Of a DNA stretch of 64,000 nt, positions 2 to 62,800 are shown piece after piece. Source of the DNA: Pyxidicoccus sp. MSG2. GTDB lineage: Bacteria; Myxococcota; Myxococcia; Myxococcales; Myxococcaceae. Numbering within the stretch: the first letter of the stretch is position 1; every line of letters starts with the position of its first letter. The notes under the pieces are model-generated. The model did no database searches. It was not told the origin of the DNA and worked only from the letters and a program-made list of their open reading frames with translations. The stretch covers positions 1,984,001 through 2,048,000 of the forward strand of contig NZ_JAPNKC010000001.1 in the NCBI RefSeq assembly GCF_026626705.1. Direction: 5' to 3'. The translations under genes were made by a program, and so were the position numbers.

Positions 2-34137
<34,136 letters not shown>

Positions 34138-34141
<4 letters not shown>

Positions 34142-44100: not shown

Positions 44101-47100
44101 CACCCTGCGCGCCGCGCTGAAGGAAGTCCTGCCCGAGTACATGGTGCCCTCGGCCGTGGTGGTGCTGCCCGCGATGCCGCTCACGTCCAACGGCAAGGTG
44201 GACCGCAAGGCCCTGCCCGCCCCGGACCTCGCGGCAGCCAGCGGGCGTCCGGAGTTCATCGCGCCGCGCACCCCGACGGAAACGCTGCTGGCCGGCGTCT
44301 GGAGCGCGGTGCTCGGTGTGGAGCAGGTCGGCCTGTCCGACAACTTCTTCGAGCTGGGTGGACACTCCCTGCTGGCCACCCAGGCCATCAGCCGCATGCG
44401 CGCCGCCTTTGGCGTGGAATTGCCGCTGCGAGAGTTGTTCGACGCCGCCACGCTGGCCGACCTCGCGGCGCGGGTGGAGTGGGCGGTGCTGGCGGGCCAG
44501 GGTCCCCAGCTTCCACCGCTGGTGCCAGTGGCTCGCACGGACGAGCTGCCGGTGTCGCTGTCGCAGCAACGCCTGTGGTTCCTGGACCAGCTCGAGCCGG
44601 GCAGTGCCTTCTACAACCTGCCGGGCACGCTCCACCTGGAGGGCGCGCTGGACGTGAACGCCCTGCAACGCGGCCTGACGGAGCTGGTGCGCCGGCACGA
44701 AGCGCTGCGCACCACCTTCCGCGAGGGCCAGCGCGGGCCCGTGCAGGTCATCCACCCGGCCGCGCCCATTCCGCTGCCAGTGACGGACCTGTCCGAGCAG
44801 CCCGCTGCGCGCCGGAGCATCGCGGGCTGGGTGCGGGACGAAGCACTGCGTCCCTTCGACCTGACACGGGGACCACTGTTGCGGGCCGCCCTGCTCCGGC
44901 TCGGGGCCCAGGAGCACGTGCTGGTGCTCACGCAGCACCACATCGTGTCGGACGGATGGTCGATGGGCGTCGTGGTGCGGGAGCTGGCCGCGCTCTATCT
45001 CGCCTTCTGCGAGAGCCGGCCCTCACCGCTGCCGGAGCTGTCGGTGCAGTACGCGGACTTCGCGGCGTGGCAACGCGGATGGCTGCGGGACGAGATGATG
45101 GAGGGCCAGCTCCGTTGGTGGCGCGAGCGACTCGCCGGTGCGCCCCAGACCCTGGAGCTGCCCACGGACAAGCCGCGTCCGGCGGTGCAGACGTCCCACG
45201 GCGCCGCGCACCCGGTACTCCTGCCCGTGCCCCTGGCCGAGGCGCTGGAGGCGTTCTGCCGCCGCGAGGGCGTCACGCCCTTCATGGCGCTGCTCGGCAC
45301 CTTCCACCTCCTGCTCAGCCGCTACACTGGCCAGGAGGACCTGCTCGTCGGCTCCGTGGTGGCGGGCCGGGACCGCGGTGAGCTGGAGTCGCTCGTCGGC
45401 TTCTTCGTCAACACGCTGCCCCTGCGGGCCCGCGTGTCGGGCACGGACACCGGCCGCTCGCTGCTCGCTCAGGAGCGGGAGAGCGTGCTCGGCGCGTTCC
45501 CCTACCAGTCCGTGCCCTTCGAGCGGCTGGTCGAGACGCTCAAGGTGGAACGCGACTCGAGCCGCCCGCCGCTGGTGCAGGCGACGTTCGTCCTCCAGAA
45601 CGCCCCCGTGCCCGAGCTGTCGCTGCCGGGACTGACGCTGCGCGCGCAGCCAGTGGAGGACAGCCCGGTCCGCTTCGAGCTGGAGCTCGGCCTGTGGCGC
45701 ACCGCCGAGGGCTTCTCCGGCCAGCTCTCCTACAACGCGGACCTCTTCGCACCGGGGACCATCGCCCGGATGGCGGAGCACTTCCGCGTCCTCGCCGAGG
45801 GACTCGTCGCCCGCCCCGAAGCGCCGCTGGCATCCCTGTCCATGCTGACGGAGGCCGAGCGTCGCCAGGTCCTGGTGGACTGGAACGCCACCGCCACCGA
45901 CTACCCGCGCGACACGCCCATCCACGCACTGTTCGCCCGGCAGGCGGCCCTCTCGCCGGACGCGGTGGCTGTCGTCTTCGGAGATGCACAGCTCACCTAC
46001 GGAGAGCTGGACCGGCGCGCCAACCAACTGGCGAACCACCTGCGAGCCAGCGGCGTGGCGCCAGGCGCGCGCGTGGGCGTGTGCCTGGAACGCTCGCTGG
46101 AGCTGGTGGTGGCGCTCGTGGGCGTTCTCAAGGCGGGCGGCGCCTATGTGCCGGTGGACCGCAACCAACCCACCGAGCGCATCACCTTCCTGCTCCAGCA
46201 GGCGGGCGTCGGCGTGCTGCTGACGCAGGAGCACGTGGCGGATGAGTTGCCCGCGCTCGGCCAGCTCCTCGTGTGCCTGGACACCGAGTCGACGCAGGTG
46301 TCGCGCTGGCCGGAGACCGCGCCGGAGGTAGACGTCTCCGCCGATGCGCTGGCCTACGTCATGTTCACCTCGGGCAGCACCGGCCAGCCCAAGGGCGTCT
46401 GCGTGCCGCACCGGGCCGTGGTGCGCCTGGTGCGCGGCTCCACCTTCATCGACTTCGGCCCGGAGCACACCTTCGCGCAGCTCGCACCGGTGGCCTTCGA
46501 CGCCTCCACGCTGGAAATGTGGGGCGCGCTGCTCAACGGCGGCCGGCTGGTGTTGGCCCCACCGCACAAGGTGTCGCTGGAGGAACTGGGTGCGCTGCTC
46601 GTCAGCCAGGGTGTCACCACGCTGTGGCTGACGGCGGCCCTCTTCGAACAGATGGTGCTGCACCAGGGCGAGGCCCTGGCCCGCGTGCGGCAGGTGCTCG
46701 CGGGAGGTGACGTGCTGCCCGCCGAGCGCGTGCGCCAGCACCTGGAGCGGCTCCCCGAGGGCGCCGTCCTCGTCAACGGCTACGGCCCCACCGAGAACAC
46801 GACGTTCTCCGCCACGCACACGCTGCGGCGCGGGGACGCTCCAGGCACGTCGGTGCCCATCGGCCGTCCCCTGTCCAATTCCAGCGCGTACGTGCTGGAC
46901 GCGGCGCTGCAACCGGTGCCCGTGGGCGTGCCCGGTGGGCTGTACGCCGGCGGTGATGGCCTGGCCTGGGGCTACCTGGGCCGCCCGGAGCTGACCGCGG
47001 AGCGCTTCGTCCCGCATCCCTTCAGCACCGAGCCCGGGGCGCGCCTCTACCGCACCGGAGACCGGGTGCGCTGGAAGCCCGACGGCACGCTGGAGTTCCT

Positions 47101-48067
47101 CGGCCGCACCGACTTCCAGGTGAAGGTGCGCGGCTTCCGAATTGAGCCAGGCGAGGTGGAGGCCGTGGTGCGCCGCTTCGCTGGCGTACGCGAGGCCGTG
47201 GTGGTGGTGCGCGAGGATGTCCCGGGCGACAAGCGCCTGGTGGCCTACGTCGTGGCCGAAGAGGAGGAGATGCTGGAGGCCCAGGCCGTGCGCGCCTTCC
47301 TCCAGCAGAAGCTGCCCGAGTACATGGTCCCCTCCGCCGTGGTGGTGCTGCCGGCGCTGCCGCTGTCGCCCAACGGCAAGGTGGACCGCAAGGCGCTGCC
47401 CGCCCCGGGGGCGCCGGGCGGCGGCGACGGCGTGGAGTACGTCGAGCCCCGCACGGAGACAGAGCGCCAGCTCGCGCTGTTCTTCTCGGAACTGCTCCAC
47501 GCCGAACGCGTGGGAGCGCACGAGAACTTCTTCGACCTGGGCGGCCACTCGCTGCTGGCCACGCAGCTCGTGTCGCGGGTGCGCACGACGTTCGGCTTCG
47601 ACATGCCCCTGCGGGACCTCTTCGAGGCGCCCACCGTGGCCGAGCTGGCCGGTCGCATCGACGCCGCGCGGAGTACAGAGGCCGGCCCGACCCGTCCACC
47701 GCTGGTGCCCGTGCCGCGCACCGGACCGCTGCCGCTGTCCTTCGCTCAGCAGCGCCTGTGGTTCCTCGACCAGCTCGAGCCCGGCAGCGCCTTCTACAAC
47801 ATCCCCGCCGCCGTCCGGCTCGAAGGCCCCCTGGACGTGGGCTCGCTGGAGCGGGCTCTCCAGGAGCTCGTCCGCCGACATGAGGTACTGCGCACCACGT
47901 TCCGCCAGGACGCGGGCGGCGCCGTGCAGGTCATCGCGCCCGTCGCGGAATTGCCGCTGCGCGGGGTGGACCTGAGCGGGCTCGACGGCGACGCCGCCGA
48001 GGCGGAGACCCGGCGACTGTGGACGAGGACGCGCGGCGCCCGTTCTCCCTGGGCACGGGCCCACTGA
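38150..48067 (+). CDS. Nonribosomal peptide synthetase NRPS-2, first part (frame ends at a frameshift)
   Basis: 3305 residues: a short N-terminal leader (LTSEQKRARLAELLRDKA), three complete C-A-PCP modules, and the first ~115 residues of a fourth C domain. The ATG at 38150 has AAAGG 9 nt upstream. The frame then runs into a TGA after the out-of-frame tail WTRTRGARSPWARAH. Homology resumes at once in the next frame (see 48019-64000), so the stop results from a lost base and not from a natural C-terminus. As written, the protein would end before the HHxxxDG motif of C4 and could not pass on its chain. The gene starts with a C domain with no A domain before it, so it either acylates the first residue (starter C domain) or takes a chain from another protein. 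Confidence 0.92.
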   Translation: MALTSEQKRARLAELLRDKARPSRRAPLSFAQERMWFQERLNPGSAAFNIPTAVRLSGELNVDALRRALQELVRRHEALRTTFVEQDGQVLQHVAVSLDVALPVVDAEGGEPSEREAGAWRLLHADARKPFDMEKGPLLRTVLYRWDVSEHLLLLNVHHIVSDGWTMGVLVRELGALYPALAAGQAAPLPALPMQYADFATWQRGWLQGETLDTQLGYWRRQLDADAMLELPTDKPRPSVASTDGARLTVMLPPALLQSLKALAGREGRTLFTLLLSAYQVLLSRYSGQEDVVVGTPIAGRNRSELEGLIGLFVNTLALRADLSGDPSFLALMARVHEASLGAFAHQDVPFEKLVEVLQPERKLSSTPLFQVMFALQNAPLPPLRVPGLTLEVQPVDSGTSQVDLTLLATEVPQGLRLAAVYRTDLFEEPTVRRLLAHFQTLLEGIAAHPEARLSELPLMDEAEQRQVLREWSATASDYPRESTLPDVFAQVVARFPDHIAVESSSSRLTYRQLDERSNQLSHHLRGLGVGADSRVALAVERSLELMVSLLAILKAGGAYVPLDASYPRERLAGMVEDAAPHALITTRALLPRLPVEGLSTLVLEDAALASEPTHAPSPMALPDSLAYVDFTSGSTGRPKGVGTTHRNVLRTLLGADYARFGPDEVLLQFAPISFDASTFEIWAALLHGARLVVMPPQAASLEELGHVIQSSGVTTMWATSGLFTQLVDNPPPGLSTVKHVMTGGDVVSPTHVRRAVEELRIPVTNLYGPTETTVFATSWPVTRAEQVGTSVPIGRPIGGTQVYVLDSHGQPVPVGVIGELYIGGDGLARGYLGQPSLTAERFVPDSFSGIPGARLYRTGDRVRWLAGRVLDFVGRADTQVKVRGFRIEPDEVQAVISTFPGVRAAVVVTREDAHGGKRLVGYVAAPESLDVAALRTFLVERLPEYMVPSALVRLDALPLTANGKVDRKALPAPESMALAATADYVAPRTSTEENLAALWAELLGLPRVGTGDHFFELGGHSLLATRVVSRIRASFGVELPLRELFQAPTVAALAARIDAAVSAGEVGMLPPIERVPRTERLPVSYSQQRLWFLDQLEPGSAAFNMPFTLELAGTLDAEALRRALEALLHRHESLRTTFHGEAEGPVQRINAPAPLEMALVDLSGLPPEQRQTESRRRINAESLRPFDLAVRPLLRAMLLKLEEQSHVLLLNVHHIVADGWSTSVLVRELGVVYSALASGQPFVLPALPLQYVDYAAWQRKWLNGEELEKQLTWWRRQLDGAAQDLELPTDRPRTHHPSPPGALAPVRLPRELAAAVESFCNREGLTPFMLFLAAFQLLLASYSGQDDISVGSPVAGRNRAELEGLVGFFLNTLVMRTRLDGDPTVRELLGRVREMALGAYAHEHVPFEQLQPMRDLRQAPLFRVMFILQNTPPAELALPGLAIRSAPVGDHVAKFDLTLTLTRTQEGFEGALDYRADLFEASTVERMARHLRTLVEAVVATPGKRLSALSLLSGEERQRLLVDWNATRADFPEVCIHSLFEAQVRRAPAARAASFEGQHLTYAQLDAKANQLAHALRRRGVGPEVRVALSVERSLDIVVGLLGILKAGGAWVPVDPLLPRERLAFMLEDSGATVLVTQAPLLERFSEAHHARAFCLDTEKDALSRESTDAPVTSVAPYHLAYLLYTSGSTGTPKGTAVEHRSVANLVTHEAVAYGIGPGSRVLQFASLSFDLSVEEIFTTLCSGASLVLSPLEKLMPGAPLQKLLREESLTVISLTPAALAATSAEGLPALRTVISGGEALPSEVVARWAPGRRLLNTYGPTEATVIATLTECVADGRIPSIGRPLANVRVYVLDGRGEPVPVGVKGELYVGGVGVARGYAGRSALTAERFVPDRFSGESGARLYRTGDVVRWREDGTLDFVGRADAQVKVRGFRIELGEVESALAKLPGVREAVVVAREDGPGGKRLVGYVVAHEGTQADGSTLRAALKEVLPEYMVPSAVVVLPAMPLTSNGKVDRKALPAPDLAAASGRPEFIAPRTPTETLLAGVWSAVLGVEQVGLSDNFFELGGHSLLATQAISRMRAAFGVELPLRELFDAATLADLAARVEWAVLAGQGPQLPPLVPVARTDELPVSLSQQRLWFLDQLEPGSAFYNLPGTLHLEGALDVNALQRGLTELVRRHEALRTTFREGQRGPVQVIHPAAPIPLPVTDLSEQPAARRSIAGWVRDEALRPFDLTRGPLLRAALLRLGAQEHVLVLTQHHIVSDGWSMGVVVRELAALYLAFCESRPSPLPELSVQYADFAAWQRGWLRDEMMEGQLRWWRERLAGAPQTLELPTDKPRPAVQTSHGAAHPVLLPVPLAEALEAFCRREGVTPFMALLGTFHLLLSRYTGQEDLLVGSVVAGRDRGELESLVGFFVNTLPLRARVSGTDTGRSLLAQERESVLGAFPYQSVPFERLVETLKVERDSSRPPLVQATFVLQNAPVPELSLPGLTLRAQPVEDSPVRFELELGLWRTAEGFSGQLSYNADLFAPGTIARMAEHFRVLAEGLVARPEAPLASLSMLTEAERRQVLVDWNATATDYPRDTPIHALFARQAALSPDAVAVVFGDAQLTYGELDRRANQLANHLRASGVAPGARVGVCLERSLELVVALVGVLKAGGAYVPVDRNQPTERITFLLQQAGVGVLLTQEHVADELPALGQLLVCLDTESTQVSRWPETAPEVDVSADALAYVMFTSGSTGQPKGVCVPHRAVVRLVRGSTFIDFGPEHTFAQLAPVAFDASTLEMWGALLNGGRLVLAPPHKVSLEELGALLVSQGVTTLWLTAALFEQMVLHQGEALARVRQVLAGGDVLPAERVRQHLERLPEGAVLVNGYGPTENTTFSATHTLRRGDAPGTSVPIGRPLSNSSAYVLDAALQPVPVGVPGGLYAGGDGLAWGYLGRPELTAERFVPHPFSTEPGARLYRTGDRVRWKPDGTLEFLGRTDFQVKVRGFRIEPGEVEAVVRRFAGVREAVVVVREDVPGDKRLVAYVVAEEEEMLEAQAVRAFLQQKLPEYMVPSAVVVLPALPLSPNGKVDRKALPAPGAPGGGDGVEYVEPRTETERQLALFFSELLHAERVGAHENFFDLGGHSLLATQLVSRVRTTFGFDMPLRDLFEAPTVAELAGRIDAARSTEAGPTRPPLVPVPRTGPLPLSFAQQRLWFLDQLEPGSAFYNIPAAVRLEGPLDVGSLERALQELVRRHEVLRTTFRQDAGGAVQVIAPVAELPLRGVDLSGLDGDAAEAETRRLWTRTRGARSPWARAH
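38220..41335 (+). other. NRPS-2 module 1 (C-A-PCP), Val-like
   Basis: N-terminal C domain starting APLSFAQERMWFQERLNPGS with HHIVSDGWT. A domain (about 39570-41080) with SFDASTFEIW, MWATSGLF, HVMTGGDV and LYGPTETTVF, giving D-A-F-W-M-G-L-V-F-K, partly matching Val. Carrier FFELGGHSLLATR. A starter (fatty-acyl) C domain is possible, but cannot be told from an ordinary LCL domain by eye. Confidence 0.83.
41360..44490 (+). other. NRPS-2 module 2 (C-A-PCP), Lys-like
   Basis: C domain with HHIVADG. Near 42366-42400 it reads VPFEQLQPMRD, four residues shorter than the VPFEKLVEELQPERD form of other C domains in the window. A domain (about 42725-44225) with SFDLSVEEIF, VISLTPAAL, TVISGGEA and TYGPTEATVI, giving D-L-E-S-I-G-T-V-I-K. 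Glu at the third position and Ser-Ile-Gly resemble Lys codes (DAESIGSVCK); tentative. Carrier FFELGGHSLLATQ. Confidence 0.82.
44510..47670 (+). other. NRPS-2 module 3 (C-A-PCP), Val-like
   Basis: C domain with QHHIVSDG. A domain (about 45890-47405) with AFDASTLEMW, LWLTAALF, QVLAGGDV and GYGPTENTTF, giving D-A-L-W-L-G-G-T-F-K, close to Val DAFWIGGTFK. Its A6 motif is altered: GGLYAGGDGLAWGYL, where relatives have GEL and ARGY. Carrier FFDLGGHSLLATQ. Confidence 0.83.
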
Positions 48068-50840
48068 TTCGCGCGCTGCTGATGAAGCTCGGCGCCGCGG
48101 ACCATGTGCTGCTGCTCAACCTGCACCACATCGTCACGGACGGCTGGTCCTCCGGGGTGCTCGTCCGTGAGGTGGCAGCACTCTACGAGGCCTTCTCGGA
48201 CGGCCGTCCCTCGCCCCTGCCCGAGCTGCCGGTGCAGTACGCCGACTACGCCGTGTGGCAGCGCGGGTGGCTGCAGGGCGAGACGCTGGACGCGCAGCTC
48301 GGTTACTGGCGCCAGCAACTCGAGGGTGCCCCCAGCGCGCTGGAACTTCCCACCGACAAGCCGCGCCCGCCCGCGCAGTTGTTCCGTGGCGGCGTGCAGC
48401 AACGCATGTGGGAAAAGTCCCTCTGGGACGGCGCGAAGGCCCTGGCGCAACAGGAAGGAGCCACACCCTTCATGGTGCTGCTGGCGGCGTACCAGGCAGT
48501 GCTCGCGCGCCACGCGGGACAGGAGGACATCTCCGTCGGCTCGCCCATCGCCGGACGCACGCACGCGGAGACGGAGGGCCTCATCGGTTTCTTCGTCAAT
48601 ACGCTGGTGCTGCGCGCGCACGTCTCGCCCCAGGCCACCTTCCGCGAGCTGCTGGCGCAGGTGCGCGAGGTGACGCTCGGGGCGTACGCGCACCAGGACG
48701 TCCCCTTCGAGAAGCTGGTGGAGGAGCTGCAACCCCGGCGTGACTTGAGCCGCAATCCCCTCTTCCAGGTGGCGCTGACGTTGCAGAACACCCCGATGAC
48801 GGAGGTGAAGCTGCGGCAGGGGCTGGCGCTGAAGGGTATGGAGGCCGGCAACCTCACCTCGAAGTTCGACCTGTCCCTGCTGGTGTGGGAGACGGCCGAG
48901 GGTGCCTCCGCGGTGCTCAACTACGACAGTGACCTGTTCGAGCCGGACTCGGCCGGGCGGCTGCTGGAGCACGTGAGGGTCCTGCTGGAGGCCGCTGTCG
49001 CCGAGCCCGGGAAGCGGCTGCGCGAGCTGCCGCTCATGGGCGAGGAGGAACGGCGTCGGCTGGTGGAGCAGTGGAGCGGGACGGCCGCGAAGTACCCGCG
49101 CGAGGCGTCGCTGCCGGAGCTGTTCGAGGCGCAGGCGCTCAGGACGCCGCATTCGGTGGCCGTCGAGTACGAAGGCCAGAGACTGACGTACGACGCGCTG
49201 AACCGCCGCGCCAACCAACTGGCGCACCACCTGAGGACCCTGGGCGTGGGCCCGGAGGTACGGGTCGCCCTGTGCGTGGAGCGGTCGCTGGAGCTGGTGG
49301 TCAGCATCCTGGGCATCCTCAAGGCCGGTGGCGCGTACGTGCCGCTGGACGCCAACTACCCGCTGGAGCGGCAACGGTGGATGAAGCGCGAGGCCGACGT
49401 CTCGTTGCTCGTCGCGCAGGAGAAGCTGTCCGGGACGGTGGCCGAGGCCGGCGAAACGGTGGTGCTCGTCGACGCCGGGCGGAGCGAGCTCGCGCGCCAG
49501 CCGGAGAGCAATCCGTCGGTCCTTATCGGCGGCGGCCACCTGGCGTACGTCATGTTCACGTCGGGCAGCACGGGCAAGCCCAAGGGCGTGGGCGTTCCGC
49601 ACCGGGCGGTGTCGCGCCTCGTGCTGGAGACGGACTTCGCGCGCTTCGGACCAGATGAGGTGTGGCTGCAGCTCGCGCCCATCTCCTTCGATGCCTCGAC
49701 GCTGGAGCTGTGGGGCGCGCTGCTGCACGGCTCGAAGCTGGTGGTGCTCCCGGCGGGCGCGCCGTCGCTGGAGGAGCTGGGCCGCACGCTGGTGGCCTCC
49801 GGCATCACCTCGCTGTGGATCACCACGGCCCTCTTCGACCAGATGCAGGCCCGGCAGCCGGAGGCCCTGGCCCGGGTGCCGCAGGTGCTGACCGGGGGTG
49901 AGGTCCTCCCCATGGGGCGAGCCCGCGAACGGCTCGCCTCGGGGCGCACGCTCATCAACGCCTACGGCCCGACGGAGAACACCACGTTCTCCACCTGCCA
50001 CCGGCTGGAGCGGCTGGAACAGGTGGGTGCCCGCTCGGTGCCCATCGGCCGGCCCATCCGCAACACGACGACCTACGTGTTGGACGAGGCGATGCAGCCC
50101 GTCCCGGTGGGAGTCCCGGGCGAGCTGTACGTGGGCGGCGACGGCCTGGCGGTGGGCTATCTCGGCCGGCCGGACCTGACGGCGGAGCGCTTCGTCCCGC
50201 ATCCCTTCGGAAACGGAGAGCGCCTGTACCGCACGGGCGACGGGGCGCGTTGGCTCGCGGACGGGACGCTCGAGTTCCTCGGCCGCAAGGATGGCCAGGT
50301 GAAGCTGCGTGGCTTCCGCATCGAGCTGGAAGAGATCGAAGCGGCCCTGAGGCAACACCCCCAGGTGAAGGAGGCCGTGGCGCTGGTGCGCGAGGACACG
50401 GCTGGCGACAGACGGCTGGTGGCCTATGTCGTGGCACAGGGCGTGGAGGCCCAGGCACTCAAGGAGTTCCTGCGCACGAAGCTGCCCGAGTACATGGTGC
50501 CCTCGGTGCTGGTGCCGATGGACACGCTGCCGCTGACGCCTGCCGGCAAGGTGGACCGGCGCGCCCTGCCCGCTCCGACCGACTTCAGCCCCGCACAGCG
50601 TGAGTACGTCGCCCCCCGCACGGAGACGGAACAGCGCCTGGCGGTCCTCTGGGGCGAAGTGCTGGGCCACGTGCAGGTCGGTGCCGGCGACGACTTCTTC
50701 GAGCTGGGCGGCCACTCGCTGCTCGCCACGCAGCTCGTGTCCCATGTCCGTGCGTCCTTCGGCGTGGAGCTGCCGCTTCGCGCGCTGTTCGAGGCATCCA
50801 CGCTCGAAGCACTCGCCCTGCGTGTCGAGGCCGCGCGGCG
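47710..50840 (+). other. NRPS-2 module 4 (C-A-PCP) spanning the frameshift, Val-like
   Basis: The C domain starts PLSFAQQRLWFLDQLEPG at about 47732 in the first frame and continues past the shift to HHIVTDG at 48124-48144 in the second. A domain (about 49075-50580) with SFDASTLELW, LWITTALF, QVLTGGEV and AYGPTENTTF, giving D-A-L-W-L-G-A-T-F-K, Val-like. A6 has AVGYL instead of ARGYL. Carrier FFELGGHSLLATQ. Confidence 0.85.
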
Positions 50841-53800
50841 CGACGGCGCGGCGCCCGAGGCTCCTCCTCCCGTTCCCGTGTCCCGTGACGGCGCGCTCCC
50901 GCTGTCCTTCGCCCAGCAGCGCCTGTGGTTCATCGACCAGCTCGAACCCGGGAGCGCCGCCTACAACATCCCCGTCGTCCTGCGCATCGAGGGCGCCCTC
51001 CACGTGAACGCGCTCCAGCGGGCCTTCTCCGCCCTCGTCGAGCGCCATGAGGCCCTGCGCACCACCTTCGCCTCTCGCGAGGGCCAGCCCACCCAGGTCA
51101 TCCACCCGCCCTCGGACTTCGCGCTCGGCGTGGAAGACCTGTCCGCGATGCCGGAATCCGAGCGCTGGGAAGAGGCCCGCCGCCGTGCGATGCGCGAGGC
51201 GGCGATTCCCTTCGCGCTCGGAGCCGGCCCGCTGCTGCGTGCCACGCTGCTGCGGCTGGCGTCCGAAGAGCATGTGCTGGTGCTGGTGATGCACCACATC
51301 GTCTCCGACGGCTGGTCCATGGGCGTGCTCGTGCGCGACATGGAAGCGCTGTACTCGGCATTCTCCGAGGGCCAGCCGCCCGCGCTGCCAACGCTACCGG
51401 TGCAGTACGCGGACTACGCCGTCTGGCAGCGCCAGTGGCTGAGCGGTGAGACGCTGGAGGCGCAACTGGGCTGGTGGAAGCGACACCTGGCCGGAGCGCC
51501 CTCGCACCTCGAACTGCCCACGGACAAGCCCCGGCCCGCGGTGCTCTCGCACCAGGGCGGCGCGGTGCCGGTACGGCTCTCACCGGAGCTTGGCGAGTCG
51601 CTGGAAGCCCTCGCGAAGCGGGAGGGGGCCACCCCCTTCATGCTCCTGCTCGCGGCCTTCCAGGTGCTGATGTCTCGCTACTCGGGCCAGGATGACGTGC
51701 TGGTGGGCTCGCCCATCGCGGGCCGCCGGTATGCGGAGACGGAAGGGCTCATCGGCTTCTTCGTCAACACGCTGGTGCTGCGCAGCCGGGTGAATTCGCG
51801 CACCTCCTTCCGGACGCTGCTGGCCCAGGTGCGGGAGACGACGCTGGGCAGCTATGCCCACCAGGACGTGCCCTTCGAGAAGCTGGTGGAGGAACTGCGG
51901 CTGGAGCGGGACCTCAGCCGCCCCGCACTCTTCCAGGTCCTCTTCGCCCTGCAAAACGCGACCCGGGTGACGCCGCGGAAGTCCTCATTGGGCTTACGGC
52001 AGGTGGAGTTGGACAACCCCACCAACCGGTTCGAGCTGGAGCTCAACCTCGCGCAGTCGGGTCAGGGCTACGAAGGCGTGCTGAGCTACAACACGGGCCT
52101 GTTCGAGGCCGGTACCGCTCAACGGATGGCGGAGCACTTCCGCCTGCTGGTGGATGCGCTCGTGGCCCGGCCCGAGGTGCCCCTCGCGTCCGTGTCCATG
52201 CTGTCCGAGGCGGAACGCCGGCAGGTGCTCGTGGAGTGGAATGCCACCGCGCAGGTGGCGACCCGGTACGGGGACCAGGTCGCCGTCGAGCCTGGCAACA
52301 CGCGCGTGTACCTGCTGGAGTCCTCCGGTCAGCCGGTGCCCGTGAATGTCACCGGTGAGCTGTTCATCGGCGGCGACAGCGTGGCGCGTGGCTCCGTGGA
52401 GCAGCCCGCTCTCACCGCGGAGCGCTTCGTCCCCGATGCGTTCTCCGGTGTCCCCGGTGCGCGTCTGTACCGCACGGGAGACCTCGCGCGTTGGCGCCAT
52501 GACGGCGTGCTGGAGTTCCTGGGCCGTGCCGATGCGCCGGTGAAGGTGCGCGGCTACCGCATCGGCCTCGCCGAAGGCGAAGCAGCGCTGGCCTCCACTG
52601 CGGACTTCGTTGCTCCACGCACGCCGACCGAGGAGAAGCTGACGGAGCTGTTCACCGAAGTCCTGCGCCTGCGAAGGGTGAGCGTCACCGGCAGCTTCTT
52701 CGAGCTGGGCGGCCACTCGCTGCTGGCCACCCAGCTCATCTCGCGCATCCGCTCCACGTTCGAGGTGGAGTTGCCCCTGCGCGCCCTCTTCGAGGCGCCC
52801 ACCGCGGCCGCCCTCGCCGCTCGCATCGAGTCCGCCCGTCAGTCCACTTCGGGCCCTCGGGCGCCCGCCATCGTTCCCGTGCCTCGCACGGACGCCCTGC
52901 CACTGTCCTTCGCCCAGCAGCGCCTGTGGTTCACCGACCAGCTCGAGCCCGGCAATGCCTCCTACAACATGCCCACCTTCGTGCGCATGGAGGGGCAGCT
53001 CGACGTGGGCGCCTTGCGGCACGCCTTCGACGAGCTGGTCCGCCGGCATGAAGCCCTGCGCACCACCTTCGTCCAGCACGAGGGCGAGCCCGTCCAGCAT
53101 GTCTCTCCCACGGGCACGCTACCGCTGGACACCCCCGACCTCAGCGCGCTGGAGCCCCAGGCCGCGCGCGAGGAACTGGAGCGACACCTCCGCGCGGACA
53201 TGCTGCGCCCGTTCGACCTCACCACGGGCCCGCTGCTGCGCGCACAACTGCTGAAGCTGAGCCCCACCGAGCACGTGCTGTCGCTCAACATGCACCACAT
53301 CGTCTCGGACGGCTGGTCCCTGGGCGTACTGGTGCGGGAAGTGGCGGCCCTCTACGACGCCTTCTCGCAAGGCCGGCCTTCGCCCCTGCCGCCCCTGTCC
53401 ATCCAGTACCCCGACTACGCCGTCTGGCAGCGACAGTGGCTCCAGGGCGCGGTGCTGGACGAGCAGCTCGGCTGGTGGCGCCGTCAGCTCTCGGGCCGCA
53501 CCACGCTGGAGCTGCCCACCGACAAGCCCCGCCCGCCGGTGCAGACCTTCCGTGGCGCGCAGGTGCCGGTGGCCCTGTCGCCCTCGACGTCCGAGGCGCT
53601 CAAGGCACTGTGCCAGCAGGAGGGCGCCACGCCCTTCATGGCGCTGCTCGCCGCATTCCAGGTGCTCCTGTCCCGCTACTCCGGGCAGCAGGACGTCTCC
53701 GTCGGCTCGCCCATCGCGGGCCGCCAGCGCGGGGAGACGGAAGGCCTCATCGGCTTCTTCGTCAACACCCTGGTGCTGCGCTCCCAGGTGGACCCGAACA

Positions 53801-56800
53801 CCTCCTTCTTCCACCTGCTGCGTCAGGTGCGCGAGACGGCGCTGGGTGCGTACGCACATCAGGACGTGCCCTTCGAGCGACTGGTGGAAGAGCTCCAGTC
53901 CACGCGCGACCTGAGCCGCGGCCCGCTGTTCCAAGTGCTCTTCGCCTTGCAGAACACGTTCATGCCCTCGCTCGACATGAACGGGCTGAAGCTGCGCCCG
54001 CTGGAGGTGGACAATCCCTCGGCCCGCTTCGAGCTGGAGCTGAACCTGGGCGAGACGGCGAAGGGCGTCCAGGGCTCGCTGACCTACAACACCGACCTCT
54101 TCAATTCCGCCACGGCCAACCGCCTCGCGGAGCACTTCCGGGTGCTGGTGGAGGCGCTCGTCGCCCGGCCCGAGGTGCCCCTCGCCTCCGTGTCCATGCT
54201 GTCCGAGGAGGAACGCCGCAAGGTGCTGGTGGAGTGGAATGCCACCGCCACCGAGTACCCGCGCGCCTCCACCCTGCCCGAGGTCTTCTCGCAGGTCGTG
54301 GCGCGGTACGACAACAAGGTCGCCGTGGAGTCTGGCGAGGAGAATCTCACCTACCGGCAGCTCGACGCGCGCGCGAATCAGCTCGCCTGGCATCTGCGCG
54401 GGCTGGGCGTGGCCACCGACTCCCGCGTGGCCATTGCCCTGGACCGCTCGCTGGAGCTGATTGTCTCCCTCGTCGCCATCCTCAAGGCCGGTGGCGCCTA
54501 CGTCCCGCTGGACCCGTCGTATCCCCGTGAGCGCCTCGCCGCCATGGTGGAGGACGCGCGTCCTGGCGTGCTCATCACCTCGCGCGCGTTGCTGGCGAAA
54601 CTGCCTGGCGAAGGCCTGTCCACCGTGGTGCTGGACGAGGTGTCCCTGGCCGGCCAGCCGACGTCGACGCCTCCCGTGGCGGCCCTCCCGCAGAGCCTTG
54701 CGTATATCGACTTCACCTCCGGCTCCACGGGCCGGCCCAAAGGTGTCGGGACTCCTCAGGCCGCCGTGTTGCGCACCGTCTTCGGCAACGACTACGCGCA
54801 CCTCGGCCCGGACGAGACGTTCCTCCTCATCGCTCCCGTCTCCTTCGATGCCTCCACGCTGGAGCTGTGGGGCCCGTTGCTCCATGGTGCGCGGCTCGTC
54901 GTCTTCCCGCCGCACTCGCCTTCCGACTTGAAGGAGCTGGAGTCGGTCCTGGTGAAACATGGCGTGACGACGCTTCACCTCACGGCGGGTCTCTTCACCC
55001 AGGTGGTGGACAACAACTTCCAGGCCCTGCGCAACGTGAAGCAGTTGCTCACGGGCGGCGATGTGGTGAGCGCGCCGCACGTGCGCCGTGTTCTCGAAGA
55101 GCTGCGCATCCCCGTCACCGCCTGCTACGGCCCGACCGAGACGACGCTCTTCGCCTCGACCCACCGCATGACGGATGTGGCTCAGGTCGGCACGGCCGTG
55201 CCCATCGGCAAGCCCATGGGCAACACGTGCGTGTACCTGCTGGATGTCTCCGGTCAGCCGGTGCCCGTGGGGGTCGTGGGTGAGTTGTTCATCGGCGGCG
55301 ACGGCGTGGCGCGCGGCTATGTGGAGCAGCCCGCCCTCACCGCCGAGCGCTTCGTCCCCGATGCGTTCTCCGGTGTCCCGGGTGCCCGCCTCTACCGCAC
55401 GGGGGACCTCGCGCGTTGGCGCCCGGACGGAGTGCTGGGGTTCCTCGGCCGTGCCGACGCGCAGGTGAAGGTCCGTGGCTATCGCATCGAGCTCGCGGAA
55501 GTCGAAGCCGCCCTGCTCGCCTTCCCCGACGTGGCCCAGGCCGTGGCCCTGGTGCGTGAGGACGTGCCCGGTGACAAGCGCCTTGTCGGCTACGTCGCCG
55601 CTCCCGAGTCGCTCGACACGGCCGCCCTGCGCTCGGCCCTCAAGCAGCGGCTGCCCGAGTACATGGTGCCCTCCGCCCTGGTGCGGCTGGACGCCCTGCC
55701 GCTCACCGCCAACGCCAAGGTCGACCGCAAGGCCCTGCCCGCGCCCAACTCCAACGCCGCCTCGCGAGGTGAAACGTATGTCGCCCCGCGCACGCCCACC
55801 GAGCAACGACTGGCCGAGCTCTTCTCCCAGGTGCTGCGCGTGCAGCGCGTGGGCGTCCAGGACGACTTCTTCGAGCTGGGAGGCCACTCGCTGCTGGCCA
55901 CGCAGGTCATCTCCCGCATCCGCGCCACCCTCGGCGTGGAGTTGCCCCTGCGCGCCCTCTTCGAGGCTCCCTCTGTCGCCGCGCTCGCGGCGCGAGTGGA
56001 GACTCCTGTCTCTTCGCGTGCCCTCCAGGCGCCATCCCTGCTGCCCGTGTCCCGTTCGGGCCCGCTGCCGCTGTCCTTCGCGCAGCAGCGCCTGTGGTTC
56101 ATCGACCAGCTCGATCCGGGTGGCACCGCGTACAACATGCCCACCGTGCTGCGGCTGCATGGGCCCCTGGACGTGCCCGCGCTGGAGAAGTCCTTCACCG
56201 CGCTCGTCGAGCGGCACGAGTCGCTCCGCACCAGCTTTGGCGTGCTCGATGGCGAGCCCGTCCAGGTCATCGGCTCCCAGGCACGTTTCCCACTGTCGGT
56301 GGTGAACCTGAGCGCGCTGCCCGCCGAGGAGCGCGAGGCCGAGGCCTTGCGCCAGACACGGCTCGAGACGCAGCGTCCCTTCGACCTTGCACGAGGGCCC
56401 GTGTTCCGCGCCCTCCTGCTGCGCCTGGGCGCGCAGGACCACGTCCTCATCGGGACGATGCACCACATCGTCTCCGACGGCTGGTCCATGGGCGTCATGG
56501 TGCGCGAGCTGGCGGAGCTCTACGCCGCGCACTCCCTCGGCCGTGAGGCCCGCCTGCCCGCCCTGCCGGTGCAGTATGCGGACTTCGCCGCGTGGCAGCG
56601 CTCGTGGCTGCGGGGTGAATCACTGGAGAAGCAGCTGGGGTACTGGCGCGAGCAGCTCTCCGGCGCGGCCCCCGTGCTGGAGCTGCCCACCGACAGGCCA
56701 CGGCCTTCGGTCCAGTCCTCGCGCGGTGCCTGGCTCCCCGTCCACCTGTCTCGTGAGCTGACCGAACGACTGATGGCGCTGTGCCAGCAGGAAGGCACCA

Positions 56801-59800
56801 CACCCTTCATGGCCCTGCTCGCCGTGTGGCAGGTGCTGCTGTCGCGCTACTCGGGTCAGGACGACATCTCCGTCGGCTCGCCCATCGCCGGCCGCACCCG
56901 CGCGGAGACGGAAGGGCTCATCGGTTTCTTCGTCAACACGCTCGTACTCCGCACCCAGCTGGACGCACGCGCCACCTTCCGGGAGCTGCTCTCCAAGGTG
57001 CGGGCCACCACGCTCGGCGCCTACGAACATCAGGACGTCCCCTTCGAGAAGCTCGTCGAGGAGCTGCAACCCCAGCGCAGCATCAGCCACTCGCCCCTGT
57101 TCCAGGTGATGCTCGTCCTGCAGAACACGCCCGTGGCTTCACTGGAGGTGGCCGGCGTCCCTGGAGGCGCCGCGCCGCTGCGGATGCAGCCGGTGGATGT
57201 CGAGCTCCAGGCCGTGAAATTCGACCTCACGCTGTCACTGGCACAAACACCGGACGGACTGTCCGGCACGCTGAGCTACCGCACGGACCTGTTCGAGCGG
57301 TCCACCATCTCCCGCATGGCGGAGCACCTCGCCACCCTGCTGGAGTCCGCGGTGTCCTCGCCCGGGAGTCGCGTCGGAGAGCTGCCCCTGCTGCGCGACA
57401 CCGAGCGCCACCAGGTGCTGGAGGCCTTCAATGCCTCACCGGCACCCTTTGTCGCCGAAGGCCCCCTGCACGCACTCATCGAGGCACAGGCCGCGCGCCA
57501 CCCGTCCAGGCCCGCGGTGGCCTGTGAGGGACTGGTGCTCACCTACGGGGAGCTGGACAGGCGGGCCAACCAGCTCGCCTGGCACCTGCGCTCGCTGGGC
57601 GTGGGGCCCGAGACGTGTGTGGCCCTGTGTCTGGAGCGCTCCGTGGACACGGTGGTGGCGCTGCTGGGCATCTGGAAGGCGGGCGGCGCCTACGTCCCGT
57701 TGGACCCGGCACAGCCCGCCCTGCGCCTGCGGACGCTGGTGGAAGAAGTCCTGGCCCCGGTGGTGGTAACCCAGTCGCGCAATGCGGACGCCTTCGTGGG
57801 CGCTTCCGTCCAGCCGGTGTTACTGGACACGCAGGCCGAACAGCTCGCGGCCGGGCGAGTGGATGCACCACCGTGCGAGGTGTCCGCGGACCACCTGGCC
57901 TACGTCCTCTTCACCTCGGGTAGCACTGGCCGGCCCAAAGGCGTGGCCGTGGCCCACGGGCAACTCGTCCACTACGTGCGTGCCGCCACCGAGCGGCTCG
58001 GCCTGGCCGACTGCGACAGCTTCGCCCTGGTGTCCACCTTCGTCGCCGACCTGGGCAACACCGTGCTCTTCCCCGCCCTGTGCACCGGCGGCCTGCTGCA
58101 TGTCCTCACCCAGGAGCGCGCCAGCAGTCCAGAGGGCGTGGCCGAGTACTTCCAGCGCCATGCGGTGGAGTGCGTGAAGCTCGTTCCCTCTCACCTGTCC
58201 GCGCTGCTCACGGCCGCCGAGCCCAGGCACGTACTGCCTCGCAAGAAGCTGGTGCTCGGCGGTGAGTCCTCCACCTGGGCCCTCATGGAGCAGGTGCGCG
58301 CGCTGGCGCCTGACTGCGAGGTGTTCAACCACTACGGCCCCACGGAGACCACCGTGGGCGTGCTCGCCGGCCCGGTGGAGACGCCGGCCCCGGGCTCCGC
58401 GCCGGTGGCGGTGCCGCTGGGCCGGCCCCTGGACTGCTCGCGACTGTACGTGCTCGACGCGGCCTTCCAGCCCGTGCCCGTGGGCGTGCCTGGCGAGCTG
58501 TACATCGGCGGCGCTCAGGTGACGCGCGGCTACCTGCACCGGCCGGAATTGACGGCGGAGCGCTACCTGCCCGACCCCTATTCGCCCGTGCCGGGCGCGC
58601 GCATGTACCGCAGCGGAGACCGGGTGCGCTGGCGCGAGGACGGGCGCGTGGAGTTCATCGGCCGCGCGGACTTCCAGGTGAAGGTGCGTGGTTTCCGCGT
58701 GGAGCCGGGGGAAGTCGCCACCGTGCTGCGCGAGCACCCCGAAGTGCGCGACGCGGTGGTGCTGGCTCGCGAGGACGTCCCCGGCGACAAGCGCCTGGTG
58801 GCCTACGTCAGCCCCACCCTGGACGTCTCGGGCCTGCGCGCCTGGATGCGCGAGCGTCTGCCCGAGCACATGGTGCCCTCCGCCTTCGTGCCTCTGGAGG
58901 CGCTGCCGCTGACGCCCAACGGCAAGGTGGACCGCAAGGCCCTGCCCGCCCCCGTGATGAGCACGGACGCGAGCGCCACCTTCGTGGCCCCGCGTACGCC
59001 CACGGAGACGCAGCTCGCCGCCATCTGGGCCGAGGTGCTGCATCTGGAAACGGTCGGAGCCACCGACGACTTCTTCAACCTCGGCGGCCACTCGCTGCTG
59101 GCAACGCAGGTCGTCTCCCGCGTGCGCCGCGCCTTCGGAGTGGAGCTGCCCGTGCGCGCCCTCTTCGAGGCGACCACCCTCGCCACGCTCGCCTCGCGCG
59201 TGGAGTCCGCACGGCCGTCGCACGCCGCCGAGCAGCTCCCTCCGCTGGTGTCCGTGCCGCGCACGGGCCCGCTGCCCCTGTCCTTCTCGCAGCAGCGCGT
59301 CTGGTTCCTCGACCAACTCCAGCCCGGCAGCGCCTTCTACAACATCCCCTTCGCCGTGAGCATCGACGGCCCCCTGCACCGCGAGGCGCTCACCCGCACC
59401 CTCCAGGAACTCGTCCGTCGCCATGAGGTGCTCCGCACCAGCTTCCACACCCTGGAGGATGGCGAGCCCTTCCAGCGCGTCCACCCGGACGCGGAGCTCA
59501 CGCTGTCCTTCGTGGACCTGGGCCAGCTTCCCGAGTCGCAGCTCGACGAGGCGGCCCGGCGCGAGGCGCTCGCGGAGGCCCAGAAGCCCTTCGACCTGAA
59601 GCAGGCGCCGCTGCTGCGTGCCACGCTGGTGCGGCTGACGGACGAGCGCCACGTGCTGCTCGTCACCGTCCACCACATCGTCTCGGACGGCTGGACCAGC
59701 GGCATCCTCTTGCGCGAAGTGGGGGTGCTCTACCCGGTCTTCGTCCGCGGGTTGCCTTCGCCGCTGCCGCCGCTGCCGTTCCAGTACGCGGACTACGCGG

Positions 59801-62800
59801 CCTGGCAACGCGGCTGGCTGCGTGACGAGACGCTGGAGCGGCAGGTGGCCTGGTGGCGCCACCAGCTCCATGGCGTGCCCCATGCGCTGGAGCTGCCCAC
59901 CGACAGGCCTCGCCCGCCCGTGCAGACGGACCGCGGCGCCACGGTGCCGGTGCGCCTGGGGGCGACCCTCACGGCCACCTTCAAGCAGTGGTGCGAGCGC
60001 GAGGGCGTCACGCCCTTCATGGGCCTGCTCGCCGTGTGGCAGGTGCTGCTGTCGCGCTACTCGGGTCAGGACGACATCGTGGTGGGCTCGCCCATCGCCA
60101 ACCGCCAGCACACGGAGCTGGAGGGCATCGTCGGCTTCTTCGTCAACACCCTCGCCCTGCGCGGACGGCTGGCGCCCGGGATGAGCCTGCGCGAGCTGCT
60201 CGCCCAGGTGAAGGAGACCACGCTGGGTGCCTATGCCCACCAGGATGTTCCCTTCGAAAAGCTGGTGGACGCGCTGAAGCTGGAGCGGGACTTGAGCCGC
60301 ACCCCGCTGTTCCAGGTGATGCTCGGGCTGACGAACACCCCGCACCAGCGGACGCCAGAAGCCGACGGCGACGGTGCCGGCGTCGTGCGGCCGCTGGAGG
60401 TGGACAGCGGTACGTCCAAGTTCGACCTGGCGCTGCTGCTCGCGGACCTCGAGGACGGCATCTCCGGATGGCTCGAGTACAGCACCGACCTCTTCGACGA
60501 GGCGACGGCGCGGCGCATGGGCAGCCACCTGGTGCGGCTGCTGGAATCGGCCGTGGCCGACGCGGGCCAGCCCATCTCCCGCCTGAAGCTGCTGGGTGAG
60601 GACGAGCAGCGCCAGGTCCTGGTGGACTTCAACGACACCTCGCGCGCGCCCTACACGCCCGTGCTGGTGCACCGCCCGGTGGAGGCCCAGGCCCGGCGTA
60701 CGCCGCAGGCAGTCGCCGTCAGTGACGGCACGCGCTCGTTCACCTACGCGGAGCTGGACGCGCGCGCCAACCAGGTGGCGCACTACCTGGTCGAGCTGGG
60801 TGTGCCCGCCGGAGGCACGGTGGGCATCTGCCTGGACAAGAGCCTGGACATGGCCGTCGCCGTCCTGGCCACGCTCAAGGCCGGCGCCGCCTACCTGCCA
60901 CTGGACCCGAGCTACCCCGCCGACCGGCTCGCCTTCATGCTGGAGGACGCGCAGGCCCCGGTCCTCCTCACGCAGTCGCACCTGCTCTCCGCGGTGCCCG
61001 CCAACACGGGCGCGCTCCGCGTGTGCCTGGACACCGAGGCCGAGCTGCTCTCGCGCCAGCCGTCGCACGCGCCGGACCGCGACGTGTCGCCGGAGTCCAA
61101 CTGCTACTTCATCTACACGTCAGGCAGCACGGGCCGGCCCAAGGGCATCGTCATGCCCCACCGAGCGATCAGCTCTCTGCTGGCGTGGCAGAACCCGCGC
61201 TCCGTGGTGCGCCCGGAGGGCGTCACGCTGCAGTTCGCCTCGCTCAACTTCGACGTGTCCCTCCAGGAACTGTTCGGCGCGTGGTGGTGCGGGGGCTCGG
61301 TGCTGCTGCCCACGGGCGGCCTGCGCCAGGACATCCCCGCGCTGCTCGAGTTCATGGACACGCACGCGGTGGAACGACTGTTCCTTCCGTTCGTCGCGCT
61401 CCAGGCCATGGCGGACGCCGTGTCCCATGGCGCTCCGGTGCCGCACGCGCTCGTCGAGGTGGTGACGGCGGGTGAGCAACTCCAGGTGACACCGGCCCTG
61501 GTGGCCTTCTTCGAGAAGCTGCCCGGGTGCATACTGGAGAACCAGTACGGCCCGTCGGAGGCACACGTCGTCTCCGCGTACCGGCTGGAGGGCCTCCCGT
61601 CCGCGTGGCCGAAGCTGCCGTGCATCGGCGCACCGGTGGGTCATACGCAGCTCTACGTGCTGGACGCGCACGGGCAGCCCTGCCCGGTGGGCGTGCCCGG
61701 TGAGGTGTTCGTCGGCGGCACGCATCTGGCGCACGGCTACCTGGCGCGACCTGACCTGACGGCGAAGGCCTTCGTGCCGGACCCGTTCAGCACCGAGCCG
61801 GGAGCGCGGCTGTACCGCACCGGCGACGCGGCGAAGTGGAGGACGGACGGCACGCTCGAATTCCTCGGCCGCCTGGATGGACAGGTGAAGCTGCGCGGCT
61901 ACCGCGTGGAGCCAGGCGAGGTGGAGTCCGTCCTGCGCGCCGCGCCCGGAGTCCGCGACGCGGCCGCCGTGGTGCGCGAAGTGGTGGCGGGCGACAAGCG
62001 ACTGGTGGCCTACGTCGTCGCGGAGGGCGCGGTGGATGCGGAGGCCCTGCGCGGTTTCCTCCAGCAGCGGCTGCCCGAGTACATGATGCCCTCCGCCTTC
62101 GTCATGATGGAGGCCCTGCCGCTGACGCCCAGCGGCAAACTGGCGCGCAACCTGCTCCCCGCGCCCGACGCGGAGAGCCTGCGTGGCGACGCGCCCTTCA
62201 CCGCCCCGCGCAACCCGTTGGAGGAGAAGCTCGCGGAGCTGTTCTCCACCATCCTGCGCCTGCCGCAGGTGAGCATCACCGACAGCTTCTTCGAGCTGGG
62301 TGGACACTCGCTGCTGGCCACGCAGGTCATCTCGCGCATCCGCTCCCAGCTCGGAGTGGAGCTGCCGCTACGTGTCCTCTTCGAGGCGCCCACCGTCGAG
62401 CGGCTTGCCGCGCGCATCGAGTCGGCGCGTCAGTCCGCTTCTGGCACGCGAGCGCCGGCCATCGTCCCCGTGCCGCGCACCGGGCCGCTGCCCCTCTCCT
62501 TCGCCCAGCAGCGCCTGTGGTTCATCGACCAGCTCCAGCCCGGCAGTGCCTCCTACAACATGCCCACCTTCGTGCGCATGGAGGGGGTGCTCGACGTGGC
62601 CGCGCTTCAGCGCAGCTTCGAGGAACTGGTGCGTCGGCATGAGGCCCTGCGCACGACCTTCACCCAGCAGGAGGGCCAGCCGCTCCAGCTCATCACCCCC
62701 ACCGGGCGCCTGCCGCTGGAGGTTACGGACCTCAGTGGCCTGGGGCCCGTCGCCGGCCGCACCGAGCTGGAGCGTCGCCTGCGCGAGGAACTGCTGACCC

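What the first reader, a model, noticed from the sequence alone, without database searches (positions are those of the whole stretch)
52237..52618. Adenylation domain collapsed by in-frame deletions while C and PCP remain intact
Against module 6 of the same gene, about 1173 nt (391 codons) are missing. The loss looks like three separate in-frame deletions: WNATA to QVATRY; VAVE to GNTRVYLL, joined at a shared GGC (885 nt between the two sites in module 6); and EAAL to ASTADFVAPR, joined at an Ala-Ala-Leu-coding microhomology. Extra missense changes hit conserved A6 and A8 residues. Keeping the frame through three deletions is odd for a simple pseudogene and fits either module skipping, loading in trans, or a snapshot of module contraction.
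Basis: seen in the sequence. Interest (0 to 1): 0.85.

Follow-up and report, generated by a model that had tools for sequence, protein, structure and literature searches.

The report
NRPS module losing its adenylation domain
One station of a giant bacterial peptide-building enzyme has lost the part that picks its amino acid through frame-preserving deletions, the largest of them shared with a sister species, while its neighbouring parts stay intact, giving a view of how such assembly lines shrink or share parts.

Summary
In module 5 of a ten-module NRPS gene, 378 nt stand where intact modules have 1545-1551 nt; against module 6 the loss is 1173 nt (42 + 885 + 246), all in frame. It is not an assembly artefact: a separately assembled sister species (G022, Pyxidicoccus caerfyrddinensis by contig match) has the same 885-nt deletion in the corresponding module. 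Three other relatives keep a full A domain there. The N-terminal deletion has different endpoints in the two species, so in-frame erosion continued after they split. The 97-aa remnant lacks motifs A1-A5, A9 and A10, departs from conserved residues more than any of 81 intact A domains of the array, shows relaxed but not neutral evolution, and is not confidently folded by AlphaFold. C5 shows no relaxation. PCP5 keeps its motif and ordinary residues, although its dN/dS is raised on few changes. Most likely PCP5 is now charged by another A domain of the same predicted specificity, as in fungal SidD and bacterial CmnI; module skipping is the main rival and not excluded. A second A-less module in the same array also lost an A domain that a relative retains. 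Known kind of system, unusually well staged example.

The parts
50872..52227 (+). C5, condensation domain of module 5, intact, active-site motif HHIVSDG
   Evidence: Domain search, motif; dN/dS 0.067 against 0.068 background
52231..52293 (+). C5-to-remnant joint with the G000-specific 42-nt deletion (WNATA to QVATRY) and the left side of the shared 885-nt deletion (VAVEP)
   Evidence: Codon-level comparison with G022, G002, paralogue and module 6
52294..52584 (+). 97-aa remnant of the A domain (A6-A8 region only; A1-A5, A9, A10 missing; motif names recalled)
   Evidence: Alignments; PF00501 19.9 bits against cut-off 29.9; TIGR01733 130.7 bits against 317.4; pLDDT blocks 26-53
52585..52605 (+). 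Right side of the joint of the third, 246-nt deletion (ALASTAD)
52606..52830 (+). PCP5 with phosphopantetheine motif GGHSL, grouping with PCP5 of G022 and G002
   Evidence: Domain search, tree, PF00550 60.7 bits
52870..56004 (+). Module 6 (C6-A6-PCP6), intact; A6 code DALLLGCLFK, same as the A domain found in the corresponding module of the paralogue, G026 and G011
38150..48067 (+). First reading frame of the NRPS gene (modules 1-3 and the N-terminal part of C4)
48018..48024 (+). Approximate place of the single missing base that splits the gene inside C4 in this assembly; the base is present in G022, G002 and the paralogue
48019..63999 (+). Second reading frame (rest of C4, module 4, collapsed module 5, modules 6-8, part of 9), continuing beyond the window to module 10 and 282 aa after the last PCP

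Best explanation
Module 5 of this ten-module NRPS lost its own adenylation domain in the common ancestor of two Pyxidicoccus-type species by a large in-frame deletion (885 nt, removing A1-A5) and, most simply, a second one (246 nt, removing A9-A10). The leftover 97 aa is decaying into a linker and was trimmed further in frame, separately in each species, while C5 and PCP5 are kept (sequence evidence). The frame is kept because modules 6-10 are still needed (inferred). PCP5 most likely still carries an amino acid, loaded by another A domain with the specificity of the lost one, first candidate the adjacent A6 (inferred, not shown), so that a ten-residue product is kept with nine A domains.
For: Same structure at 91% DNA identity over 1001 bp in G022; an intact A domain in the corresponding module of G002, G026 and G011, and its first 122 positions in G019 before a contig end. 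C5 and PCP5 group with C5 and PCP5 of G002. Shared VAVEP/xNTRVYLL joint; different retained residues at the N-terminal joint. Remnant dN/dS 0.318 against 0.084 background (2dlnL 11.75) and below 1 (2dlnL 10.6); C5 0.067 against 0.068. At conserved columns C5 departs at 3 of 90 (9 of 76 other C domains depart at 3 or more), all three changes also present in the intact gene-2 module 4 of both species, and PCP5 at 1 of 23 (38 of 84 other PCPs at 1 or more). Code of the A domain in the corresponding module: DALLLGCLFK (paralogue, G026, G011) or DALLLGGVFK (G002); in G000 A6 and A9 carry DALLLGCLFK and A10 DALLLGGVFK, in G022 A6, A9 and A10 carry DALLLGCLFK. Natural precedents with C and T kept and A lost: SidD module 2 (truncated A lacking about 290 N-terminal aa; T loaded by A1) and SidC (PMC10192304, passages); CmnI loaded by CmnA-A1 (PMC12400406, part 1 of 2 of section 4).
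Against: No loading was observed. In the within-chain precedents read (SidD, SidC) the A domain lies upstream of the carrier it serves; here the same-code A domains lie downstream and the A1-A4 codes differ, except that A1 of G022 has DALLLGGVFK. PCP5 dN/dS is raised on the collapsed branches (0.49 against 0.062, 2dlnL 6.75, not distinguishable from 1); its amino-acid divergence is ordinary (5 of 75) but its synonymous divergence is the lowest of the 14 PCP pairs compared. C5 of G022 groups with the gene-2 C domain of its own species, so part of the constraint seen in C5 may come from gene conversion. The remnant's own tree does not follow module position: it falls beside module 6 of G000 or a gene-2 late module, so A segments have been exchanged between modules. 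Two intact A domains (A1, A10) diverge between the species as much at the protein level (19.5% and 18.7%, against 18.6% for the 97-aa remnant), though at dN/dS 0.31 and 0.27 against 0.60. Artificial deletion of the plipastatin A6 domain gave skipping and truncation (PMC5984369, passages), and a 381-bp A-domain deletion in apnB of one Planktothrix strain abolished production (PMC5311044, passage).
Confidence: 0.5

Rival explanations
1. Module skipping: PCP5 is never charged, C6 takes the peptide directly from PCP4, and the product is one residue shorter. C5 and PCP5 are structural passengers on the way to complete module loss.
For: A5 lacks its catalytic core. The tandem gene 2 has 7 modules against 10, so module number varies in this family (that gene 2 lost modules, rather than never having had them, is inferred). 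PCP5 dN/dS is raised. Plipastatin A6-domain deletion led to skipping, and myxochromide S module 4 skipping is cited in the same paper (PMC5984369, passages).
Against: C5 shows no relaxation and PCP5 keeps its motif and conserved residues, unlike the remnant beside them; both points are weakened by possible gene conversion and by the small number of PCP5 changes.
Confidence: 0.35
2. The whole gene is inactive in these species and the collapse is pseudogene decay, with the tandem gene 2 doing the work.
For: In the window's assembly a missing base splits the gene upstream of module 5.
Against: In G022 the gene is open over the 6411 and 3941 aa held on two contigs, taken to be one gene by domain order (part of A7 between them is not seen). 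At least four length changes kept the frame and the remnant has no stop in either species. Interspecies dN/dS of the other gene-1 domains compared is 0.03-0.33. Six of seven breaks of frame in the array could be followed and all six go the same way, a lost base, as expected of long-read deletion errors.
Confidence: 0.1
3. Assembly artefact between near-identical modules.
For: The array is highly repetitive (100 matches listed for the 1 kb query).
Against: Closest copies are 91% (C part) and 87% (A part) identical; the separately assembled G022 has the same structure with species-specific differences.
Confidence: 0.02

Closest known systems
SidD / Nps6 module 2 (fungal) and SidC modules 4-5
   Same: C and T kept; A truncated by loss of about 290 N-terminal aa (here 295 aa in deletion 2) or missing; another A in the same chain has the needed specificity (PMC10192304, passages)
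   Different: Fungal; the loading A lies upstream, here the same-code A domains lie downstream; here further in-frame trimming is seen between two species and the C-terminal subdomain is lost too; loading not shown
CmnI / VioI (capreomycin and viomycin module 3)
   Same: Bacterial A-less module with C and T, loaded in trans by an A domain of another module (PMC12400406, abstract and part 1 of section 4)
   Different: Separate protein, described as lacking an A domain; here inside one multimodular chain with a decaying remnant
Plipastatin synthetase with engineered A6 deletion
   Same: A removed while C and T are kept inside a long line (PMC5984369, passages)
   Different: Engineered; gave skipping and shortened products
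Myxochromide S synthetase, module 4
   Same: Myxobacterial NRPS with a module that does not contribute its residue (cited in PMC5984369; original paper not read)
   Different: From recall, the module keeps its domains and its carrier is inactive; here most of the A domain is deleted and the carrier motif is intact
SyrE ninth module (syringomycin)
   Same: C-T-TE module without A, completed in trans (PMC8949500, passages); resembles the second A-less module of this array
   Different: Dedicated stand-alone A-T partner SyrB1; none was seen in this array

Membership tests
Canonical C-A-PCP elongation module | Complete A domain with core motifs A1-A10 | tested here: not met
   378 nt instead of about 1550; PF00501 19.9 bits against cut-off 29.9; TIGR01733 130.7 against 317.4
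A-domain-less module loaded from another module (SidD M2 / CmnI type) | C and T domains present with catalytic motifs | tested here: met
   HHIVSDG and GGHSL present in both species; PF00550 above cut-off
A-domain-less module loaded from another module (SidD M2 / CmnI type) | Own A absent or lacking its catalytic core | tested here: met
A-domain-less module loaded from another module (SidD M2 / CmnI type) | Another A domain of matching specificity available | tested here: inconclusive
   A6 and A9 (and A10 in G022) have the code of A5 in the paralogue, G026 and G011 by motif-anchored reading, but they lie downstream and specificity is only predicted
A-domain-less module loaded from another module (SidD M2 / CmnI type) | T domain aminoacylated by that A | not testable with these tools
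   Needs an intact-protein mass assay
Skipped module (myxochromide S type) | Residue of the module absent from the product | not testable with these tools
   Product unknown
Skipped module (myxochromide S type) | Carrier domain inactive (feature recalled) | tested here: inconclusive
   Motif intact and residues ordinary, but dN/dS raised on few changes
Pseudogene | Broken reading frame and loss of constraint across the gene | tested here: not met
   Open in the parts of G022 held, constraint in the other domains; the single-base split in this assembly is unverified

The most novel reading that the evidence does not exclude
A bacterial NRPS chain in which a downstream A domain (A6) charges the carrier of the module before it, after that module lost a redundant A domain of the same specificity, with the stages of loss visible: intact in relatives, core deleted in a common ancestor, remnant trimmed separately in two species, and, in a second line of the same array, an A domain replaced by a short Pro-rich linker.
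Probability: 0.3. Interest if true: 0.65.

Novelty: new member of a known kind. Interest (0 to 1): 0.45.

Why it matters
NRPSs are known to differ by whole modules or domains; intermediate states are, as far as I know, seldom caught. Here the intact state in relatives, the core deletion and lineage-specific trimming can be read at one locus, with the neighbouring C domain as an internal control. It makes a concrete question testable: can an A domain serve the carrier of the module upstream of it, or is the module skipped? Either answer bears on product prediction from sequence, since simple colinearity would fail here, and on engineering by A-domain removal.

Tried and rejected
Assembly collapse: rejected. 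Pseudogene: rejected for G022, left open for the single missing base in the window's assembly. A dedicated stand-alone A domain in the array: of the 129 PF00501 matches listed (309 first-look candidates, 129 scored), those inside 1.79-2.08 Mb lie in frames of 1108 aa or more that hold other NRPS domains; none stand-alone was seen, and that search did not list the remnant itself, so small pieces could be missed. The remnant as a surviving folded domain: in the AlphaFold model its residues (475-571) have block pLDDT 26-53, the same segment of intact module 6 with the same 18 sequences 53-76; shallow alignments, so supportive only. Independent origin of deletion 3 in the two species was considered because its joint codons differ at 5 of 9 bases, but the equal remaining length (20 aa in both) makes a shared deletion the simpler reading; left open. 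The dN/dS of the remnant below 1 may reflect pre-collapse time on the stem branch or gene conversion; not resolved. In the listings of paper searches I saw no report of this locus; of 34 papers naming P. caerfyrddinensis 8 were listed and none was opened (one search failed); the library holds open-licence PMC papers only. A junction-pattern search of 61 genomes matched the window's genome and one place in G034, not followed up; a looser junction pattern over genome contigs gave one record, P. caerfyrddinensis.

Rows dropped before counts: only A domains covering query positions below 30 to above 500 were counted (81); C domains under 300 bits or partial were left out (76 others kept, columns at least 95% conserved) and partial PCPs (84 others kept, columns at least 90% conserved); A domains of 430 aa or less; gapped codons were removed before dN/dS (97, 452 and 73 codons). 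Genus searches used strict cut-offs (1e-120, 1e-280, 1e-150; 27 genomes each), so weaker orthologues were not listed.

Full report
What is there. The window is part of a 13.3 Mb genome in 2 contigs and lies in an array of about 280 kb of NRPS genes; the genus is Myxococcus/Pyxidicoccus as inferred from the relative named. The finding sits in module 5 of a ten-module gene (modules 1-3 in the frame 38150-48067, the rest in the frame from 48019 onward). Between the last conserved residues of C5 and the PCP there are 378 nt where module 6 has 1551, gene-2 module 4 has 1548 and the corresponding module of G002 has 1545.

Is it real. A search of 27 genomes of the genus with the 1001-bp stretch at E 1e-120 gave a full-length match in one other genome, G022 (91%), and a match to the PCP-C6 part in G002 (93%). 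The G022 contig has the length and the junction of NZ_JAAIYA010000051.1 of Pyxidicoccus caerfyrddinensis CA032A (30907 bases). Within the window's genome the closest copies are 91% (C part) and 87% (A part) identical, rather different for an assembler to merge.

Intact state in relatives. With the C5 DNA as query 6 of 27 genomes match at E 1e-280: G000 and G022 (two places each), G002, G026, G019, G011. G002, G026 and G011 carry a complete A domain after the matching C domain (fifth module of its frame in G002 and G011, sixth in G026), and G019 the first 122 positions of A before its contig ends. In the trees C1 to C8 pair module by module across G000, G022 and G002 (C9 and C10 are mixed), and PCP5 of the three group together (PCP1 and PCP9 do not pair cleanly). 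The A domain was therefore lost on the lineage of G000 and G022. Both species also have a tandem gene 2 (seven modules in G000; five held in G022) whose module 4 corresponds to module 5 and is intact.

History. The joint of the 885-nt deletion is the same in both species (VAVEP, then G or D, NTRVYLL). The N-terminal joint differs: G000 keeps VEWNATA and lost the following 14 aa, G022 lost VEWNATA and keeps PEAFSQV, so these are separate events after the split. The third deletion leaves 20 aa in both, but its three joint codons differ at 5 of 9 bases. Four length changes all in frame have chance (1/3)^4, about 1 in 81, without selection on frame (own arithmetic).

Selection. C5 has 0.067 against 0.068. 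PCP5 has 0.49 against 0.062 (2dlnL 6.75) and is not distinguishable from 1; in the pairwise table its amino-acid divergence (5 of 75) is ordinary and its synonymous divergence is the lowest of 14 PCP pairs. At conserved columns the remnants depart at 5 and 6 of 39 (intact: mean 0.46, maximum 4, n = 81), C5 at 3 of 90 in both species and PCP5 at 1 of 23; all three C5 departures are also in intact gene-2 module 4 of both species and two of three in G002. Against this: two intact domains, A1 and A10, differ between the species as much as the remnant at the protein level (19.5%, 18.7%, 18.6%), at lower dN/dS; C5 of G022 groups with the gene-2 C domain of its own species, a sign of gene conversion that weakens the C5 argument; and the remnant's own tree does not follow module position, so its placement rests on the flanking C5 and PCP5.

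Structure. With 18 window sequences, AlphaFold gives most of C5 and PCP5 moderate to high confidence but the remnant block pLDDT 26-53; the same segment of intact module 6 has 53-76 in the control. The remnant is best seen as a linker.

How it may work. The codes read from aligned motifs (positions recalled from the GrsA-based scheme) give DALLLGCLFK for the A domain of the corresponding module in the paralogue, G026 and G011, and DALLLGGVFK in G002; in the window's gene A6 and A9 have DALLLGCLFK and A10 DALLLGGVFK, in G022 A6, A9 and A10 all have DALLLGCLFK. Loss of a redundant A domain with loading of PCP5 by a neighbour is thus possible. The natural A-less modules I read about are loaded from another module or a stand-alone A: SidD and SidC (passages), CmnI (part of the text), SyrE (passages). 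In SidD and SidC the A domain is upstream of the carrier; here the candidate lies downstream. Skipping is the rival, supported by plipastatin A6 deletion (passages). A 381-bp A-domain deletion in apnB of one Planktothrix strain is reported to abolish production (PMC5311044, passage), and loss of domains and modules is described as a driver of diversification in cyanobacterial megasynthases (PMC12184294, passages).

A second case. The line at G000:C1:1794427-1809843 ends C, Pro-rich linker, PCP and a tail that looks like a thioesterase by eye, with no A domain between C and PCP. G022 has the same stretch (94% over 1301 bp). G026 has a full C-A-PCP at the corresponding place (C domains 1-5 of the two lines match best in order, 73-83%), code DVSLIGGVFK, similar to A3 of that line (DVMLIGGVFK). 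So two A domains appear to have been lost from two lines of this array in this lineage.

Frame split. The gene is split in C4 by one missing base. Of seven breaks in the array six could be followed and all six go from frame 2 to frame 1, a lost base, which suggests residual sequencing errors, not proven.

Verdict. A real, shared collapse of an A domain in an otherwise maintained module; known kind, well-staged example; function undecided between loading from another A domain (favoured) and skipping.

Noticed in passing
G000:C1:1794427-1809843 (L025/L024), last module of that line: Second A-less module: C, a short Pro-rich linker, PCP, thioesterase-like tail (by eye). G022 has the same stretch; G026 has a full A domain at the corresponding place.
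   Followed up: partly
G000:C1 frames 1860801-1894010, 1894286-1936855, 1936933-1948314: Three parallel lines contain PCP-A-PCP with no C domain between, only about 60 aa that end like a C domain, as if a C domain had collapsed before the lines were duplicated.
   Followed up: partly
window 48018-48024 and six other places in 1.81-2.07 Mb: Breaks of reading frame inside domains; the six of seven that could be followed all correspond to a lost base, suggesting residual long-read errors.
   Followed up: partly
window 34138-38006: MFS transporter and a penicillin-amidase family gene directly upstream of the NRPS gene, which begins with a C domain; an acylase that removes an acyl cap is a possible role (role inferred).
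   Followed up: no
window 33293-34138: The preceding NRPS frame ends in a thioesterase domain; several other frames of the array have about 260-290 aa after their last PCP, so the array may consist of several complete lines.
   Followed up: partly
G011:C333 module 5 A domain: A5 is intact but carries a tandem repeat insert (GQPASSSTS units) in its N-terminal part.
   Followed up: no
G034:C7:164881-164903: Only other match of the first junction pattern among 61 genomes, on the reverse strand; nature unknown.
   Followed up: no
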